Below are positions 41,701 through 54,281 of a stretch of 64,000 nt of DNA, one piece after another; positions within the stretch are counted from its first letter, which is position 1, and each line of letters starts with the position of its first letter. The stretch covers positions 5,146,001 to 5,210,000 of the forward strand of contig OX359191.1 in NCBI GenBank assembly GCA_947172415.1. The letters are read 5' to 3'. This DNA comes from Chondrosia reniformis. Its lineage: Eukaryota; Porifera; Demospongiae; Chondrillida; Chondrillidae. The position numbers and the translations under genes are program-made. The notes below the pieces were generated by a model. The model was not told where the DNA came from. It did no database searches and worked only from the letters and a program-made list of their open reading frames with translations.

Positions 41701-44700
41701 GTATAGTCAGTATTGGATGTGTCTGTCTTACAGGCTTTTAGAGGCCTGTACCTATATGGTATAAGTTACAAATAATGTTTTTGTTGATGTTAGCAATCCA
41801 TTAAATGGAGTTTGGTCTACAGCTTCATCCTATAATCCTGTATGGTTTGATTTTGGAAGGGTTCTATAATGTTCCCTCTGTTTAAGGTCACCTAAGGACC
41901 TTTATTCTTACTGTTAGTGTCTTCTATCTGTATATTGGACGGCTTAAGCAGCTTTTAATGAAACATCAGGTAACTAAGGACCCACATAAATGAGTGGTTT
42001 TTGTACTTTTTGGACTTCTAGTGTTAACCTGAAATAGTGTCTGCCTACTCAAAGTGGACCTTTATTGGTGTAGCCTTGACCTTTGTTCTAAACCAGCTGG
42101 ATAGAATTCCTACAGGAAACTTTCTTCATTGTGTACGTATGTGTACTTGATTAGGAAGTTGTTTGTAATTTTGCTTCTCTGTAGTTGTACTGCCCACTGG
42201 AATGGTACCCTCAGTCTCATTCCGCTTCTGGAAGAACACTCAAAAGTGTTCTTCAGTATAATCAACTTGAAACAACAGAGCAGAGCACACATGTTCTATC
42301 ACCCAACTGAGAAAGATTTTGCATCACATCAGTTTGAGAACAGTATCAGATGCAGTGTGGTCAGTTATGGCAAGGGTTATAATATGCACATATATGGTGA
42401 CTCCACATGGTCCTTGTCCAGTGCGGCCACTTTATAGGGAGCCCTGTAATATTAATTTACTGTCAACAAAAATTATAGTCAAACATTTTAGTTGTAGTGA
42501 CTAGCTATTAATAAGAATCAACTTTAGTCACAGAAGGTGGTCAAAGTTGGATTCTCTAGTAGAAGGGGGCACCTTTTTTCTCTTAATGTCCTCAAGCTGA
42601 AGATCTCTGTATCAGTGGCTATATACATACATGCATTTGTCATATAATGAAAGCCACATGTGAGTAGTACTTTTCCTTTGTGTAGAGTGCTTTTGTATGT
42701 CCAGTTGCTCATAACACTCCTGTACCTGGGCCAAACTGGATTATACTGACATGGAACTCCTCAAAAAGAAGAATATCAGTCAACCTTGTGGAAATCAGAG
42801 TAAGTACTAGTTGATCGTTTCATGCTACTACATATGTCATTTAATTATTAGCTACTGTAGTATTGTAAGTTATTTGCTCACCAACTGGTCCTAAGTCCTA
42901 AGTCTTTGAATTGTAGGCCTTGAGGAGAAGTCTCTACTTAGATCATTTCTCTAATATTTTTACTATATAGTACTATTGTTAAGTTTTATATGGTAAATTT
43001 TTAAAGTTCACCTAAAAATAATAATAAATAATCTTCTCTTTCATTCTGCAGGGATATGTCTTGAAGCAGTTGCTGGTAAGATTAATAATTCAGTTATTGT
43101 AAAGATGATGTCATAATGGTTATACCTACGTATGTACATATCTCAGTAGTAGTTTTACAAGTGGTGAATATCCTTTTCATTTTAATCATTAGAGTAAACT
43201 TAAAGAACGTCAAACCAGGCAGACTCGTCATATTGGATCATCTTCACATCATCATCGCCACCATCTACCCATAGTACACCAGGCAGCTAGGCTACAAGTA
43301 CCCCGACCTACAAGGCCCCCCATTGCAAATAGGATTCTACCATATTCTTATGCCCCTGTGACACTGGAGACATTGGACCCCAATTTGCCTCTCCCCTTGC
43401 AATCCACTCTTCCTCCATTCTGTACCCTGCCTGCTGGCTCAGCAGCTCCTGGTGGATCCTTTTTCACTTTCCCATCTACACCTTCACAATTCTTTCCTTC
43501 ACACTGGCACCCTCTAGGACCAGTTCCACAATGTTGTATCTTCAAGCAGATTACTACACCTGGTCAGGGATCACTGCCTCCCAACCCCTATACACTTCCT
43601 AATCCAATTACTGTCCCGCCCGTTACTTTAACATCTCAGATTCCTCAGGACATACCAGGACCAAGCAGCAGCTCTGTAATACAGCATATACAGCAACCAC
43701 AACACTCAGTGGAATTGGGTCATATTGCTAACAGTAGTAGACAAGTGCGTCAAAATCAAAGTACCAATGAAGATCAACCCAGCTCCTCCACTAATACTAG
43801 ATATATTACAAGGGAGATGTCACCTTCTCGCTCTCTGTTGCATGCTCTTAGGGGTATCAGACTTCTCTCTGGTTCTTCTTCCAACTCCAATTCTCCTTTG
43901 TTGTCTCCCATCTCATCATCGTCATCATACTCAGCAAATCAGAGTGTTGGCTCACCAAGCAGTGAAGAGTGGTCCTCTGGGAGCGAGGCCAGTAATAGCC
44001 CAATAAATGACTACCATGAGGAACCTCAAGCTGACCGGGTTCAAAGAAGTGACTCCTCACAAGCTGCAAGAGGCATGAGCTTGGAGGAAATACAGCGACA
44101 GATGAGGAGGAGCCGCAGTGGCAACTTTTACCTCTCTAGTAACAATATTCCTTCACCATTGGATGCCTTAGCTAATGCTTCTACCCTGCTGGAGAACCGA
44201 CCACATATCAATCAAATACCTGAAGGTGAGCCATGGATGAATGAATCTCATCACACCCATGGAACACTCCCTGTATTATCTGGTCAGCTTGAAGAACAAC
44301 TTCCAGCTGTGCACCCACATCAATTTGCTGTCATTGATGCTGTACCAGAGATTCAGTCTAGCTACATCGGCATGGCTCCACAGCCATCCCACCCACTTGC
44401 CCTCCCCCATAACGGAACATATATCTCTCCTTGGCCTCAAACTACTACGTCTGAGTTTTACAGGCAGTATAATAGTAAGTCAAGCCTTACAATATTTAGA
44501 AGACTTCCTAAGTTAGACTTACTATTGTTTAGAAAGGCATCTCTGAATCAATGCTATTGTTTCACATGTTTTTTGCATACTTTGTTTTGATAATTCATGA
44601 GTATCAGTAGTGATGTAGTTTATGTGTATACTGTTTGTTATGTATGTCTGTATATTATATGTATATGTAGTATGTATCTGGTAGTTATTGGCTATAACAT

Positions 44701-44742
44701 ATCTTGTCTTTGATATGAATTTAATTTTTTTGCAGACTGACA
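29769..44742 (+). CDS. RING and TRAF-type zinc-finger protein (TRAF6-like N-terminus)
   Basis: Probable E3 ubiquitin ligase/signalling adaptor. Exons: 29769-29908, 36516-36567, 36814-36918, 39780-39938, 40092-40154, 41110-41222, 42185-42359, 42686-42799, 43052-43075, 43193-44474, 44738-44742; all phases agree and give 743 codons plus a stop formed two bases into the last exon. RING ligands are C18, C21, C33, H35, C38, C41, C53, D56, the C3HC3D type of TRAF6. Residues 65-99 ([14 protein letters not shown] then [10 protein letters not shown]) and 100-165 ([25 protein letters not shown]) are TRAF-type zinc fingers. Residues 174-315 are a beta-rich region I cannot place; no MATH/TRAF-C domain is recognised. 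Residues 316-742 are Pro/Ser-rich and probably disordered, starting with His repeats. The intron after the RING half is 6.6 kb and almost repeat-free. Confidence 0.82.
30100..36500. other. Large first intron of the TRAF-like gene
   Basis: 6.4 kb without recognised coding exons or transposon ends. The sequence is TG-rich on the + strand, with scattered TACGTA/GTACGTAC motifs (for example 34681-34700). The lack of decayed transposons contrasts with the NCAPH2 intron of 13.8 kb. Confidence 0.5.
36925..39770. other. Intron between first and second TRAF zinc-finger exons
   Basis: No exon or mobile element recognised. Reading LRYLK directly into GHIRECEHA across this intron reproduces the continuous TRAF zinc-finger pattern, so no exon is expected here. 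Confidence 0.55.
40600..40726. repeat. Inverted pair of hammerhead-like/PLE terminal motifs
   Basis: AGGTTTCAACCCATGTGTCT with TCATTAGTAATAGTGA (about 40611-40647) is the imperfect inverted copy of TCATTATTGCTGATGAAGAC with CCACAGGTTGACAAATCC (about 40678-40715). The right arm on the + strand has CTGATGA but GACA where GAAA is expected, and so is not an intact ribozyme core. It resembles the 3' motif of the Penelope-like element at 62280-64000. It lies in an intron of the TRAF-like gene. Confidence 0.55.
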
Positions 44743-45095
44743 TTTCTTTGGTCTCCTCTGGAGTAATGTATTCGCAAGATTGGAAATCCAATTTGTTCAA
44801 ATACTTTTAAGACACAATGAACAGGAACTGAGTCAACAACCTTTAGTATTAATAACTTATGCTTATGTTTATGTTTATGATAATATATTTGGTTACGTAG
44901 TACTTCAGTACTACTACTTTTACTGATTATTAATATTAACTGGATTATTTGTAGCTGTTTCTGTGGACATGTTTATCTATGTTTTCATTGTTATGGAATT
45001 TTTTAGTTAAGTAGTACACGTACATTCCTCTTCGAGTCTTGCATTTCTGTTCTGGTTTTGGGCTGTATTGCCTATCTATACTCTGAACATATACA
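44743..45095 (+). other. Probable 3' untranslated region of the TRAF-like gene
   Basis: Follows the stop codon. AT-rich, no ORF. A clear polyadenylation signal was not pinned down; an AATAAA-type hexamer appears only further on (about 45895). Confidence 0.35.
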
Positions 45096-45097
45096 AA

Positions 45098-45150
45098 TCC
45101 TAAAGCCAATCTTAAAGCATCAATGTCATCATCGCTTTAAGATCGGCTTT
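45098..45150. repeat. Strong stem-loop
   Basis: CTAAAGCCAATCTTAAAGC and GCTTTAAGATCGGCTTTAG are inverted copies (one mismatch) around a loop of about 15 nt. Located 150 bp upstream of the hammerhead ribozyme, possibly part of the same retroelement relic. Confidence 0.7.
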
Positions 45151-45295
45151 AGATCTTAAACTTCCCCTATTTTTTCCATATTAGTGGTCAGCCACACTTT
45201 TGGCTGTATCCCTTATCTGCTGATAAGGAAACCACAAGCTTTCTTGCTTCTGGGAGTACTTATTAGCTGACTAGCCACTCGAATTTCCATCGTAT

Positions 45296-45340
45296 GCCAT
45301 ACTGATGAGTCCTAATAAGGACGAAACAGCTGTCTATGGC
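45296..45340 (+). ncRNA. Hammerhead ribozyme (type I-like), canonical core
   Basis: All conserved parts are present in order. Stem I GCCATA (45296-45301) pairs perfectly with TATGGC (45335-45340). CTGATGA lies at 45302-45308. Stem II is GTCC/GGAC (45309-45312, 45319-45322) with loop TAATAA. GAAA is at 45323-45326. A very short stem III, CAGCTG, leads to the cleavage triplet GTC (45332-45334). Outer flanks TAGCCACT (45272-45279) and AGTGGCTA (45357-45364) could extend stem I beyond an internal loop. A minimal stem III is typical of hammerheads from Penelope-like elements and retrozymes, which work best as dimers. Self-cleavage would occur after 45334. No RT lies directly alongside. Confidence 0.88.
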
Positions 45341-45906
45341 TCGACCATCTTTTTTAAGTGGCTAAGGGGAGACTCTGGTTCCCATTAAGTGAACTTCGGT
45401 TCCGCCCATTAGCTCATTGCGTTCCTCAGGGGACATGAGTGAACAGGGGTAATACTCAGAGTTAAATGATGATGACGACATGCTAATTTTTGTTTTAGAA
45501 CTGTGATTAAGCCACTATAGAATCTACAAAAATAGTTTCTCTTTCAGAAAAGTTCTTCATATACATAATACAATTATTGCGAGAGTTTAAATATAAAGTT
45601 CGTGTATGGAGAGTGTAGCACAGACACATGCAATGATGTACAGAATTGGCCAGTGAAAGTTTTGTCTGGGCCCATGCAGTCAGCATTTAAGTATGTTTAT
45701 CTAAATGTCATCCTTAAGCACCAAATTTACAGTTGAATCATCTACGTATATAATCATCATATGAATTATTATTTAAAATACACTGACATTTAATTTAGTG
45801 TGTTAATGGAATTACATCTCTTTTCCATTATTTTAATTGTCAATGGATTCCAAGAGGTACTTTTTATTAATAGTTGTTGTCTTTGAAAAGTTGAAATAAA
45901 TAATAC

Positions 45907-48355
45907 ATGCATGTATTAATAGTACTTATTGGATTTACCTGTAAGAATGAGATTGCTAGAACTGTTAACTTAGCTTTAATTGTTGCCATTGTGTTGCTGA
46001 ATATGATCTCCAGTGCTGTGGTACAGAAAGTACACTATCATAGCTACAGTGATCAGCCCTGTCAAAAGTATTCATATTGTAATATGACTGATGAAATAGT
46101 TAGAGCTATTTTTGCTGATGAAGAAAGCTATCAAAGGTTAATTGAGATATAAGTTTTTACCCTTTCAATCATGTTAAGCCACAGTTTGTGCTTTTCATTT
46201 TCTTTATGAACAGGACAGCAATCAACAAAGAGGTTTGCATTGACAAGGAACCCTATGTAGGAATGATATTTGAATTAAATGAAGTTAAGAATGTCTATGG
46301 AGCTATATATGTGGTAGTCATCTACTACAAATACAGTAATTTCGAATGTGATAATCACTGAGATGGCCCTATTTATTCCTCTTGGGCTTAATATATGGAA
46401 GAAAATCTAATTATATTTGACTACAATGCTGTATGTGTATCTGTCTCTTATCTTACACCACCAAATGGAGATAATTCCTAAATTAATGAGAATCTCTTGC
46501 CTGTAGTTCTGCTAGTGAGTATATGTATTTAATATACAGTATAACCCCGCCGCATATTCTGTCCCCAAAGTTACGATCAACCGGGAAATTGTTTTCAGTT
46601 TGAGTGGCCATTTTTTACACGTTACTTGCAGTGCAACGTTATAGATTCAGATGTATTACACATGGCTTGCAAAACTGTGTACACATATATTATTTTTGCC
46701 TAACTTATATACTATACTTAAGGGAATGTTTCACTTCATACAATATGCACGACAAAGCTCTAGAATAGTCATAATATGCATGCTGGTATAGGTTACTCTA
46801 TATCCTCTCAATAATCATGTAGTATTATAGAATGTATATTATATCAATTGATAAAACGCTATGTATACATAAATATATATTTTCTTCTTGTATATCTACT
46901 TATCATGTAGTTGAAAGAGGCAGTCAAAAGAAGAAAAATTGACCATGTAGCTATAGCATACAGTAGGACCCTGGGTTTTGCTTGTGGAATTGAATCTAAT
47001 GACAACAGGTTTTTCTACTGTGGCTGCATTCCCTATCCCAATCCAAGGAAAGCTCCTATTCCTATAAATGAAATTTTTACAATAGTGCTAATCTTGGTTT
47101 GGCCTCTTGCCATAGCAATTATTTTTGTTATTAACAGAGCAAGAGAAACGATTGTGCATAAAATTATTACTGGGGGTTCTGGAATATCTACTTTCAGTTT
47201 AACATGGGCTGTAGTTATATTTTCTATACTACTATTTATATACATGTTAGTTCATGATGGAACAGTGGCTGCAACACTTCTTGTTTCAGAAATTAATTGT
47301 CATAAATCCAAAGAACCGTTTTATGATACTCAGTATTATGAAAATACTGAGAACTGTATTATCCAACCCTCAAGCCACAACCACCTATGGATACCAAGGG
47401 TGTAGTTTACCTTATTCCTTGCTCTGATTGTTCTGCAGTCTACATTGGTAAAACAGGAAAGACACTGAAAGTGAGATTGGCAGAACACAGGCGAGCAGTC
47501 AGAATGGGGGATGTGAACAATGGTAGAGCTGTTCACTCCCGCTGAGGGTCACATGACAGGAAGTGGAAATGGTGGGAAAAATCCTCTATAAATAGAGGGG
47601 ATTTTTCCACTCAACCATCAGTCACTGAAGAAGATCCCCAGGGTCGAAACATTTGACAAAGAAACGAAAACAAACGGCATTTTTAAATGCTCAAAAGTCG
47701 AAGGATGTACCATCCCAAAGATAAATAGAAAGAAGTTGTACCAAAATTTGGTATTAGTATCCCTTTCGCATTACTTATAGGACTTGTGTTGGCATTTGTT
47801 GTTTCAATCTCTTCAGTGATCCCAAATGAAACTATAGCAGTGCCAAAAGTAATGTACATCATTTGCTCTTTATAGTTACACTGAAATATTTTCTAAAAAT
47901 GCATTGAATAGGACTCTGATGAAACTTGGCATTTGGGTATTACAGTTGTTGGTCTTTCTGCATATCATTTACCAGCCATGGTCTTTACATTGTTTGCAGA
48001 TCCTACATTCATCTTAGCATCTGTAATCTTTTTTTCTGCTTCAGCATTTAATACTCTTGCAGCAATTAATCCTAAGTATAGACCAAGTTTTTGTTTCAGA
48101 CAGTGAAGTGTCAATCACTGTCAAATATGGATTCAGGCAATGTCACTTATGGCTTTGTTGTTTATTAGTATAGCAACGTTTCTGATAAGTATTCACTGCC
48201 TTCTCCTGTTGGATGTCCGTCTACCTATACGAAAGAGCATCAACTTTTCATGGCTAATTTTTGTTTTGGCAACAATAATGATTCCATATCTTATTTTCAT
48301 TGTAAGGAATATATTGAGCAAGTACATTAATCTTGTGTACTCTGGAAGCAGTTGA
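45907..48355 (+). pseudogene. Multi-pass membrane protein gene, interrupted by Penelope-like insertion
   Basis: Exon-like pieces: about 45946-46138, starting with a hydrophobic signal-like segment (LALIVAIVLLNMISSAVV) and continuing QPCQKYSYCNMTDEIVRAIF; 46214-46361 (TAINKEVCIDKEPYVGMIFE); 46911-47340 with GFACGIESNDNRFFYCGC and two membrane segments (FTIVLILVWPLAIAIIFVI; LTWAVVIFSILLFIYML); 47755-47850 (IPFALLIGLVLAFVVSI, VIPNETIAVPK); 47913-48106 (WHLGITVVGLSAYHLPAMV and ASVIFFSASAFNTLAAI); 48140-48355 with two more segments. The 47755-48106 part resembles TM5-TM6 of class C (GABA-B-like) receptors; the rest I cannot place. A GIY-YIG fragment interrupts it at 47390-47700, so it is probably dead or wrongly spliced. 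Confidence 0.4.
47390..47700 (+). mobile_element. Penelope-like element 3' fragment (GIY-YIG and hammerhead-like end)
   Basis: Reads GVVYLIPCSDCSAVYIGKTG then KTLKVRLAEHRRAVRMGDV and NNGRAVH (about 47399-47540), the GIY-YIG nuclease of Penelope-like elements with Y and G-K-T-G intact. The frame stops after the histidine. About 100 bp downstream, CTGAAGA (47625-47631), stem II GATCC/GGGTC and GAAA (47646-47649) form a hammerhead-like core (position 7 of the core tolerates A), but no proper NUH cleavage site follows. No RT part remains: a 5'-truncated insertion into the membrane-protein gene. Confidence 0.82.
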
Positions 48356-48542
48356 GACTTGGTTAACACATTCAGCAAGGCAATGTTGCAAAAGCATCAT
48401 TTAGTTTGTGCAGAGAAACAATAGTGACACATTTTGCTAATCATAGTCTTTCACACAACTGTACATGTTCCTGTGTTTTCCTCAACTCATAACTGCTATA
48501 CATGGTTTACATTTAAATTGACAATATCTGTTATATGCATCC

Positions 48543-48589
48543 ATGCATATACGTACATGTATATATATATACATGTACGTATATATATG
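48543..48589. repeat. Near-perfect AT-rich palindrome
   Basis: GCATATACGTACATGTATAT and ATATACATGTACGTATATAT are mirrored around position 48566. Probably an unstable cruciform-forming simple sequence; it contains the TACGTA motif frequent in this window. Confidence 0.75.
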
Positions 48590-48718
48590 CAAGAGCAGAT
48601 ATAAACTTGGTCATAATAAAAGTAATACTTGATTAAATGCTAGTTCAGAATCTATATCATCATTAATTTTCAAGGCTATCATATACAAGTAAATAAAAAC
48701 ATTTACAAAAATGATGTT

Positions 48719-48905
48719 AGAAGTAGCTACATAGGAAAGGTAGTGTTCACTAATACATCTGCAAAAAGTATCGAAACAAGACACTGATTATATGATAAGG
48801 CTAATCATACAGTAGTTGCATATATACTGAAATTTAAGTAACTTAATCATACACTTTTGTGTTTTGGGCGCACTAACTTAAAGTAGGAATGGTGTGCCCA
48901 AACAC
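48719..48905. repeat. 0.9-kb palindromic repeat, copy 3, first arm only
   Basis: AGTGTTCACTAATACATCTG, AAAAGTATCGAAACAAGACA and ATGATAAGGCTAATCATACA follow the order of 10055-10130. It breaks off right after GTGTGCCCAAACACAG, where an unrelated non-LTR fragment begins. This marks a later insertion or deletion at the loop of the palindrome. Confidence 0.7.
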
Positions 48906-49690
48906 AGTGAGAGACTCTATTTTCTATTTCCCTACACGCTACCTCCGGGTCCAAAAAAGAGGAGGACATAGGAGGAGTCTGGCTTCCTATGTTAATGTAG
49001 CTATTAAGGAGGAAAACGACCCCCCACCCATCACCACCATGGCCAATCGCCCTCAAATGTGTCAGTCAAGACCCTGGCGACCTGAGTGGCAGCCAAACTG
49101 GAAGAGGGTGATTTTAAGGGCGTGCTCCGGAATGCAAGCTCTGTGGAGTCCTTAATTTGCTCCTGATATTGCCCAAATATTGGCCGCCATCAGTAGCAAG
49201 CACCTGCCTCCCCACCCAAACTCCAGCATGCCACTGAAACCGGTAGACCATCCACCATGTTTATATGTGTCTAGTGAGGAGGTGTCCAGAGCCATCAAGA
49301 CCTTCCTTAGTGGTTCAGCAAGGGGCCCTGATTACCTTCAGCCGCAACATCTCAAGGATATGATCTGTTGCTGTTATGTCTGTTATGCTCCCCGCCTCCT
49401 GAGAGCTCTCACTGCCTTCATCAATCTGGTTCTTGAGGGAAAGAACACACCTACTGCATGCCCTTACTTCTTTGGGGCATCTCTGATTGCTCTTCAATAG
49501 ACAGATGGGGGGTGAGGCCTATTGCGGTAGGATGTACACTCCGGCGCTTGGCAGCCAAATGTGCAGGGGCCCGGGTCATGGAGGCCATGGGGGACCTTTT
49601 GGCACCCTTCCAGCTTGGTTGTGGGACCCCGCGCTTGGTGCCAAGGTAGCAGTTCATTCTGCTAATACATTCCTCCACTCTTCTCCTTAT
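48906..49690 (+). mobile_element. Non-LTR retrotransposon reverse transcriptase fragment
   Basis: Reads VSSEEVSRAIKTFLSGSARG then PDYLQPQHLKDMI (about 49268-49360), LTAFINLVLEGKNTP and FFGASLIAL (about 49408-49497). After a stop/frameshift it reads GVRPIAVGCTLRRLAAKCAG then LLAPFQLGCGTPR (about 49507-49640). This is the N-terminal part of a widespread RT family (GG-PDGL-PQHL, KKPGGVRPIAVG) that is distinct from the CR1-like copies in this window. The catalytic YxDD region is missing. It is flanked on the left by the broken palindromic repeat. Confidence 0.82.
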
Positions 49691-53127: not shown

Positions 53128-54069
53128 TTATACAGTTTGATTGTGTACACTCCTCCCAGTGATACAACTTCTTCGGCCAGGACCACGTTCTGGGTGATTA
53201 AGCATGAATTCTGACACCCTGACATTCTCACCTCTTCGATCACATCTTACTCTTGAGGGTAATCCATTCCTTCTAACAGCATCTAGAAAGCACAACAGCA
53301 CTGTATCAGCAAGATTATTTGTGGAAGCTCTAAGGTACACAGGTAATCTTGAGTATCCATCGATTCCTCCATGAATGACAACACGCCACCTGATTAACTT
53401 ATGGTGACCATCAATATGCCACAAACTGTTTGGCATGCAAACATGGTATTGCCTCCGATGAAGAGCCTGTCTGAATCGTGTCTGTACCCCTCTAGGATCA
53501 ACTCTTAAAAGGCTATCCCTGACCCTGGAACGCTGTATCTTCAGTCCTAACCCCCTCAGATATCCGTCAAGTGACCTCTCACCTGAGTTTGGGCGTGTGT
53601 CAACATACCGTCTTGTAATGGTGTCAAGGTCTGTGTCACTGAGCATACTAAACTCAGCATCCTCTTGCAAACCGTACTGAAGAATTCTCCTTCTGATTGT
53701 TCGTGGAGACACTTGTAACATTTTTGCTATTTCAACATTGGAAAAATGGAGCTCTAACAGAGTCACCAACTGTTCCTCACTAATTGGAATTTGTGGACGT
53801 CCTTTGATATGTTGGCGATAGCTCTCATCCATGTGGTTTCGAATGGCTTTAACCATATCAAAAATAGCCTGCACAATCACCTCGCCACCTGGTAGTTGCA
53901 TGAGTCCTTCTACTGTTACAATATCCCTAAGAATCAGCTCTGCTTGTAACAGCAAAGTTCCTTCCATGTCTTCAGATAGGATCTCAATTTCTCTGATAGC
54001 TTCTTCCACTTCCAGAAAAAAATCATTTAGCTCTTGATTGTTACCATCTTGCCAGGTAGCTGCTGCCAT
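53128..54069 (-). pseudogene. IS3EU-like transposase (rve integrase), 3'-truncated, 313-codon ORF
   Basis: Open from 54069 (MAAATWQDGNNQELNDFFLE). Residues 110-140 carry a helix-turn-helix (LLELHFSNVEIAKMLQVSPR then TIRRRI). The integrase core begins near residue 205 with NSLWHIDGHHKLIRW (first catalytic Asp) and GGIDGYSRLPVYLRAS, then SRVRCDRRGENVRV (second Asp). The frame stops at SVHNQTV, exactly where related copies continue NERIE with the catalytic Glu (compare about 5900, minus). So the best-preserved copy lacks its third catalytic residue. Sequence right after the stop runs into DNA shared with a Tigger element. The long open frame suggests recent origin. Confidence 0.85.
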
Positions 54070-54281
54070 TTTAGTAAAACTAAAATGGCATTATGTATAT
54101 TTTATCGTCTACATAGACATCAACTGTCCACACCGAAGATTGACTGTCGACACCGACTATCAATGGACGACATCGACATCGCTCTTAGATATCGACATCG
54201 ACATCGATCTTCGTTTTTGTCCACTTTGGCGCTCCATACGTGTACAATATGGAATACGACGAATGTTTCCTATTATTATTT

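What the first reader, a model, noticed from the sequence alone, without database searches (positions are those of the whole stretch)
45272..45364. Canonical hammerhead ribozyme in an animal intergenic region
Seen: perfect core (CTGATGA, GAAA, GTC), perfect 6-bp stem I, 4-bp stem II and a minimal CAGCTG stem III, plus an 8-bp outer pairing TAGCCACT/AGTGGCTA. Known: such short-stem-III hammerheads occur in Penelope-like elements and retrozymes that give circular RNAs. There is no RT next to it, so it may be a retrozyme remnant or an independent ribozyme just past the TRAF-like gene.
Basis: partly seen in the sequence, partly recalled or inferred. Interest (0 to 1): 0.85.

Follow-up and report, generated by a model that had tools for sequence, protein, structure and literature searches.

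The report
Ribozyme element with Penelope-type integration marks
This is one copy of a small non-coding mobile element (a retrozyme) that carries a self-cutting RNA; the way its sister copies sit in the genome looks like the work of Penelope-type reverse transcriptases, which bears on the open question of how such elements move.

Summary
The hammerhead is real: Rfam RF00163 at 45296-45340, above its gathering score. It lies in a ~354-bp non-coding unit with 40 other full-length matches at 91-95% identity in this 117-Mb genome. The exact core pattern matches 244 times against 7 for the reversed pattern. Stems covary. In a circularised unit stems I and II form with probability 0.96-1.0; stem III does not. 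This is a metazoan non-LTR retrozyme. The window copy is a solo unit.

The new part is how copies sit. In 44 insertions, 65 of 72 outer ends fall at two unit positions ~57 nt apart; all 28 two-armed inserts are head-to-head, 19 with one end of each type. 22 of 44 score as flanked by target duplications, against 36 of 1892 mismatched flank pairs. A second family repeats this. It is the published Penelope (PLE) signature: head-to-head arms, short duplications, optional tail. PLEs here are mostly head-to-head too; the 150 best other RT matches show no opposite-strand neighbours within 15 kb. Retrozymes here were most likely integrated by PLE machinery; a circular template is plausible, unproven.

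The parts
45100..45478 (+). Whole retrozyme copy: very short inverted arm plus one unit
   Evidence: Mapping on a natural unit from L010 (locus L042 is this place)
45100..45133 (-). Short inverted arm (unit u30 back to about u351), overlapping the plus arm by about 10 bases of palindromic sequence
   Evidence: 26 of 30 identical on the minus strand at 45100-45129; 34-bp piece at 88%
45123..45478 (+). One retrozyme unit, about 354 bp, plus-strand arm
   Evidence: 335 of 356 identical to the L010 unit; 49 genome matches to a 171-bp query
45296..45340 (+). Type I hammerhead ribozyme with intact core
   Evidence: Rfam RF00163, 37.1 bits
45334..45335 (+). Predicted self-cleavage point, after C of GTC
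   Evidence: Position in the motif; rule recalled, cleavage not tested
45272..45364 (+). Outer stem that encloses the hammerhead: 45272-45279 with 45357-45364
   Evidence: Sequence; paired in the circular fold of the unit
45170..45190 (+). T-type end site of the family (u48-68, most at u50-59): where the longer of the two kinds of outer end stop in other copies
   Evidence: 28 of 72 outer ends
45468..45478 (+). M-type end site (u345 to u9 across the unit joint): right end of this copy
   Evidence: 37 of 72 outer ends

Best explanation
The feature is a solo copy of a metazoan non-LTR retrozyme. Likely cycle: tandem copies are transcribed, the hammerhead cuts the RNA into ~354-nt monomers, host ligase closes them, and the folded RNA is taken up by the reverse transcriptase/GIY-YIG endonuclease of the Penelope-like elements of the same genome. 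That protein cuts both target strands and starts cDNA at two fixed internal sites of the RNA about 57 nt apart (M near u353, T near u56), usually one on each target end; the two cDNAs are joined head to head and short target duplications remain. Shown here: ribozyme motif and covariation, the family, the two end sites, the head-to-head order, the target duplications, and PLEs of the same genome with the same order. Inferred: self-cleavage, circle formation, and that the PLE protein did it.
For: Rfam hit and covariation; family size; 65 of 72 outer ends at two sites and 28 of 28 two-armed inserts head-to-head, 19 with one M and one T end, 19 of 21 where both ends are classed, p = 8e-5 against free mixing; flank duplications 22 of 44 against 36 of 1892 mismatched flank pairs; family 2: 14 of 14 divergent, 12 of 14 with one M and one T end; ribozyme neighbours within 1 kb: 18 divergent, 0 convergent, 19 same strand among 193 listed places; a PLE with RVT_1 and GIY-YIG, its 61 RT matches giving 10 divergent, 0 convergent, 1 same-strand neighbours within 6 kb; 150 best RVT_1 matches: no opposite-strand neighbours within 15 kb. 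Published PLE anatomy.
Against: No hammerhead was found in the ten GIY-YIG loci scanned and no sequence is shared between them and the retrozyme units. Whether this PLE family has the two end sites and tail was not seen: its 3' end is single-valued with the query used, 46 of 47 matches at 391-394, the other being the query's own place. By that 3' end its neighbours are 11 divergent but also 2 convergent and 2 same strand. PLE target duplications were not measured. LINEs are present too. 7 of 72 ends fit neither site, and the site windows were set after inspection. The window copy has an untypical left end (u30) and no duplication. In vitro a lizard PLE used uncut RNA and did not need its ribozyme.
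Confidence: 0.78

Rival explanations
1. Same PLE machinery, but the template is a linear multimer (uncut tandem transcript) and not a circle; the ribozyme serves processing only.
For: Arms of two or more units exist (L010, L014, L021, L035). A lizard PLE uses unprocessed RNA in vitro (PMC11167929). Preferred stops near u50 could be pauses at structure or bound protein.
Against: Arm stops cluster at the two start sites (16 of 72 in u45-58, 14 of 72 in u335-1) and several inserts sum to about one unit (L030, L037) or run about one circuit (L041, L071), as one circle with two starts would give. Neither is proof.
Confidence: 0.4
2. Retrozyme moved by a LINE; inverted copies come from ordinary twin priming.
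For: LINE endonuclease matches exist (95) and LINEs also leave target duplications (recalled).
Against: Twin priming should leave one outer end variable (recalled); here both outer ends sit at the two fixed sites in 21 of 28 two-armed inserts. The 150 best RVT_1 matches have no opposite-strand neighbours within 15 kb; LINE endonuclease has 1 divergent pair at 5.5 kb and one more at 7.4 kb, though that domain lies far from the 3' end (recalled).
Confidence: 0.08
3. Head-to-head copies arose later, by recombination or inversion inside satellite-like arrays.
For: Some loci are duplicated (L011/L018) and some insertions lie in minisatellite arrays (10 of 44).
Against: Duplications flank whole two-armed compounds (15 of the 28 score 10 or more), and convergent pairs, equally expected by inversion, are absent among listed ribozymes within 1 kb (0 of 37 neighbour pairs).
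Confidence: 0.04
4. A single ribozyme kept for a host role, independent of any mobile element.
For: Intact core and stems in this copy.
Against: It is one of a large dispersed family with integration marks.
Confidence: 0.03

Closest known systems
Metazoan non-LTR retrozymes (Cervera and de la Pena 2020, PMC7229834; abstract and sections 13, 14, 17 read)
   Same: Non-coding units of 170-400 nt with a canonical type I hammerhead, tandem copies, target duplications in some, folded RNA in which the ribozyme can form
   Different: In that paper's main text the words inverted, sponge, Porifera and 'target site' do not occur; head-to-head two-site inserts are not described in the sections read; the RT is left open with PLEs as strong candidate
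Penelope-like elements (Arkhipova et al. 2013, PMC3846280, passages; Frangieh et al. 2024, PMC11167929, parts 1 and 2 of 4)
   Same: Head-to-head inverted copies, 8-10 bp duplications in the rotifer, optional tail at one of the inverted 3' ends, reverse transcription started at two adjacent internal sites
   Different: PLEs encode RT and GIY-YIG, and their hammerheads are minimal variants; this unit is non-coding with a fuller ribozyme and a spacing of about 57 nt between end sites against 30-40
Plant LTR retrozymes (Cervera et al. 2016, PMC4918200; search listing only, features from PMC7229834 section 13)
   Same: Non-autonomous elements with hammerheads and RNA circles
   Different: Type III hammerheads in LTRs, 4-bp duplications, mobilised by Gypsy-type machinery
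Schistosoma W-elements with type I hammerheads (PMC8490949, passages only)
   Same: Satellite-like repeats with hammerheads, hints of target duplications
   Different: No PLE or head-to-head anatomy in the passages seen

Membership tests
Hammerhead ribozyme type I (RF00163) | Covariance-model score at or above gathering | tested here: met
   37.1 against 34 bits
Hammerhead ribozyme type I (RF00163) | Self-cleavage after GTC | not testable with these tools
   Needs RNA in the tube; core intact
Metazoan non-LTR retrozyme | Short non-coding repeats of 150-450 bp with type I hammerhead, in tandem copies | tested here: met
   Unit ~354 bp; same-strand neighbours 352-364 bp apart
Metazoan non-LTR retrozyme | Dispersed copies with target duplications larger than 4 bp, when present | tested here: met
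   22 of 44 score 10 or more against 36 of 1892; the window copy itself shows none
Metazoan non-LTR retrozyme | Linear and circular RNA in the host | not testable with these tools
   No RNA data at hand
Element integrated by PLE machinery | Head-to-head inverted arms | tested here: met
   28 of 28 two-armed family 1 inserts; 14 of 14 family 2 clusters
Element integrated by PLE machinery | Two 3' end sites, tail on one of the two ends | tested here: met
   65 of 72 ends; 19 of 28 with one of each; windows set after inspection; family 2: 12 of 14
Element integrated by PLE machinery | A PLE of the same genome with the same end sites, tail and duplications | tested here: inconclusive
   Head-to-head order found; tail not visible with the query used; duplications not measured
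Penelope-like element | Encodes RT and GIY-YIG endonuclease | tested here: not met
   The unit is ~354 bp with no room for these; none is in the frames checked near it

The most novel reading that the evidence does not exclude
Retrozyme RNA circles are copied directly by a PLE protein, perhaps a dimer, that starts two cDNAs at two fixed sites of one circle, one on each target end, each running until it meets the other's start or its own. Genomic copies would then record the circular template, and animal retrozymes would be to Penelope elements what SINEs are to LINEs.
Probability: 0.42. Interest if true: 0.78.

Novelty: new member of a known kind. Interest (0 to 1): 0.58.

Why it matters
Which enzyme moves animal retrozymes has been left open; the defining paper names PLEs as a strong candidate on co-occurrence (PMC7229834 section 17). 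Copies in this genome carry the specific integration anatomy of PLEs, in two families and with same-genome controls. That makes two questions directly testable, which RT and whether the RNA circle is the template, and gives a simple genomic test for other animals.

Tried and rejected
Second ribozyme in the window: none at gathering level in 64 kb; a permissive scan of 42000-49000 gave this hammerhead and other matches all below their gathering scores, mostly microRNA models at a simple repeat. Hammerhead in PLE loci: none at E up to 1 in ten GIY-YIG loci; no shared sequence with the retrozyme units. A C-run/T-run motif seen by eye at the ends of families 1 and 2 was not found in the ten loci. 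Preference for the (TACTAGTTGTATG)n minisatellite: 10 of 44 insertions lie in it, but coverage is the same near (11.8%) and far (11.8%) from the inserts, so no local preference is shown; the window holds almost none. LINE endonuclease as orientation control is weak, so the 150 best RVT_1 matches were used too; these are the scored 150 of 1688 candidates and may be more thinly spread than the PLEs. Cleaved linear monomers as templates: 0 of 72 arm stops within 10 nt of the cut, chance 0.015; disfavoured, weakly. Two minimal hammerheads were not followed. Rows dropped before counts: L018 (duplicate of L011), a 73% fragment in L009 about 525 bp beyond the insert on the other strand, four further diverged pieces in L037, L044 and L047 (family 2), and loci that overlap a counted insertion.

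Full report
Observation. Rfam's Hammerhead_1 model hits 45296-45340 on the plus strand with 37.1 bits (gathering score 34; E 1.1e-5), the only gathering-level match in 64 kb. The predicted cut lies between 45334 and 45335 (rule recalled).

Family. A 171-bp query finds 49 matches, 41 of them (the window copy included) covering the query end to end or nearly so at 91-95% identity for the other 40; counts are lower bounds because only the best candidates are scored. RF00163 gives 65 matches, 51 over its cut-off. The pattern CTGANGAGN{8,24}CGAAACN{2,8}GTC occurs 244 times against 7 for the pattern read backwards (100 places listed). By the core there are at least three groups: family 1 (GTCC/GGAC; the window), family 2 (GCCC/GGGC with loops such as TAAAGA; L044 and L047) and family 3 (GCCC/GGGC with loop AAATGA; 182 places within two mismatches against 0 reversed, 100 listed; some of these may belong to family 2). 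A family 2 query has 57 matches.

Ribozyme constraint. On 31 distinct 45-nt ribozymes from fetched loci (families 1 and 2; one row, from L034, is a truncated copy), 93.8% of cells pair against 21.7-38.4% in slid structures. Three pairs change on both sides (5 of 500 shuffles reach this) and 6 cells do (0 of 500). Against this, further pair types do not exceed shuffles (7 against 7.7), and some copies have broken pairs, as decaying copies would. In 20 distinct core strings typed, the second stem II pair is C-G in 12 and T-A in 8. A core change from G to A in L011/L018, L025, L032 and L033 falls at a CpG; I read it as CpG decay. Folded as a circle, the window unit has -112.8 kcal/mol, z -4.8 against 60 dinucleotide shuffles, and the L010 unit z -6.0; stems I and II form with probability 0.96-1.0, stem III with 0.

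Anatomy. Family 1 insertions were mapped on one natural unit used as a circle. They come from all 34 regions, chosen from the places, and from 30 loci; duplicates, overlapping loci and family 2 removed, this leaves 44 insertions. Sixteen have one arm and 28 have two, in all 28 minus before plus, that is head-to-head. Outer ends number 72: 37 at M (u345 to u9), 28 at T (u48-68), 7 elsewhere. Two-armed inserts are 19 M/T, 1 M/M, 1 T/T, 5 M/other and 2 T/other. Where both ends are classed, 19 of 21 are mixed, p = 8e-5 against free mixing. The windows were set after inspection, ends are BLAST edges good to a few bases, and the sample is the best-matching copies.

Target duplications. With a score of matches minus three per mismatch, 22 of 44 left/right flank pairs reach 10, against 36 of 1892 pairs taken from different loci; 15 of the 22 are two-armed. 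Six of the 22 (L013, L022, L024, L026, L054, L055) lie in simple or minisatellite repeats or are set back from the edge and may be spurious. Clear cases such as L009, L021, L030, L034 and L053 abut whole compounds, so both arms entered together. The window copy shows none.

Family 2. From the coordinates, 57 matches fall in 37 clusters. Fourteen have two arms: 14 of 14 divergent, 12 with one end near query 228-235 and one near 167-182, 2 with one unclassed end. The 23 one-armed clusters end 15 T, 7 M, 1 other. The query ends at 235, so the far class is partly set by the query, and the near class lies beside a repetitive stretch that could break alignments.

Orientation genome-wide. Places listed pool to 193. 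Neighbours within 1 kb: 18 divergent, 0 convergent, 19 same strand (one of these joins two families); up to 5 kb there are 19 divergent and 2 convergent. A PLE whose frame carries RVT_1 and GIY-YIG has 61 matches, several with no stop inside; within 6 kb 10 divergent, 0 convergent, 1 same strand. By its 3' end, 46 of 47 matches stop at query 391-394, the other being the query's own place; neighbours within 6 kb are 11 divergent, 2 convergent, 2 same strand, both convergent ones lying between repeated compounds at one locus. Control: the 150 best RVT_1 matches give 0 opposite-strand and 5 same-strand neighbours within 15 kb. LINE endonuclease (95 matches): none within 3 kb, one divergent pair at 5.5 kb, another at 7.4 kb.

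Print. [quoted passage not shown] A purified lizard PLE protein cuts and extends both strands and starts at two adjacent internal RNA sites that bound the tail; ribozyme mutants still inserted (PMC11167929, parts 1 and 2 of 4). Animal retrozymes were proposed to be moved by PLEs on co-occurrence, hammerheads and tandem order (PMC7229834 section 17). I saw no report of this anatomy in retrozymes in six full-text searches and in what I opened of six papers (PMC7229834, PMC11167929, PMC3846280, PMC7761336, PMC8490949, PMC6155905); most subscription papers and preprints are outside that library.

Template. Arm stops cluster at the start sites: 16 of 72 in u45-58, 14 of 72 in u335-1, and 0 of 72 within 10 nt of the cut. 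One circle with two starts would give this, each cDNA stopping at the other's start (L030: 64 + 303 nt; L037: 54 + 309 nt) or after about one circuit (L041 and L071, 348 nt). So might pausing at structure or at bound protein on a longer RNA, and arms of two or more units exist. The single-armed stops at u349 lie in a GAT repeat and are imprecise. I hold the circular template at a little under even odds.

The window copy. One unit with a ~34-bp inverted arm, an M-type right end, an untypical left end (u30), no visible duplication, and an intact ribozyme. With one ribozyme a transcript would be cut once and could not release a circle by itself (inference). It is most likely an older, non-founder copy.

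Noticed in passing
G000:C5:2242259-2242290 and G000:C1:5642071-5642104 (outside the window): Two hammerhead cores with GAAACAAGTC, that is almost no stem III, like the minimal ribozymes reported for PLEs. No GIY-YIG match lies near them.
   Followed up: no
L081 1-3701 and L082 1-4001: Young PLE family with RVT_1 and GIY-YIG; near-identical copies, several frames without stops, head-to-head truncated copies beside one of them in a (TACTAGTTGTATG)n minisatellite.
   Followed up: partly
L011/L018, L025, L032, L033: Same core change G to A at the CpG of the hammerhead core in several insertions, probably methylation decay, which would kill the ribozyme.
   Followed up: no
window 53131-54090 (-): 320-aa frame with an integrase core match (rva_4, E 6.9e-44).
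   Followed up: no
window 48523-48604: Simple-repeat stretch that draws weak, below-threshold microRNA-model matches on both strands.
   Followed up: no
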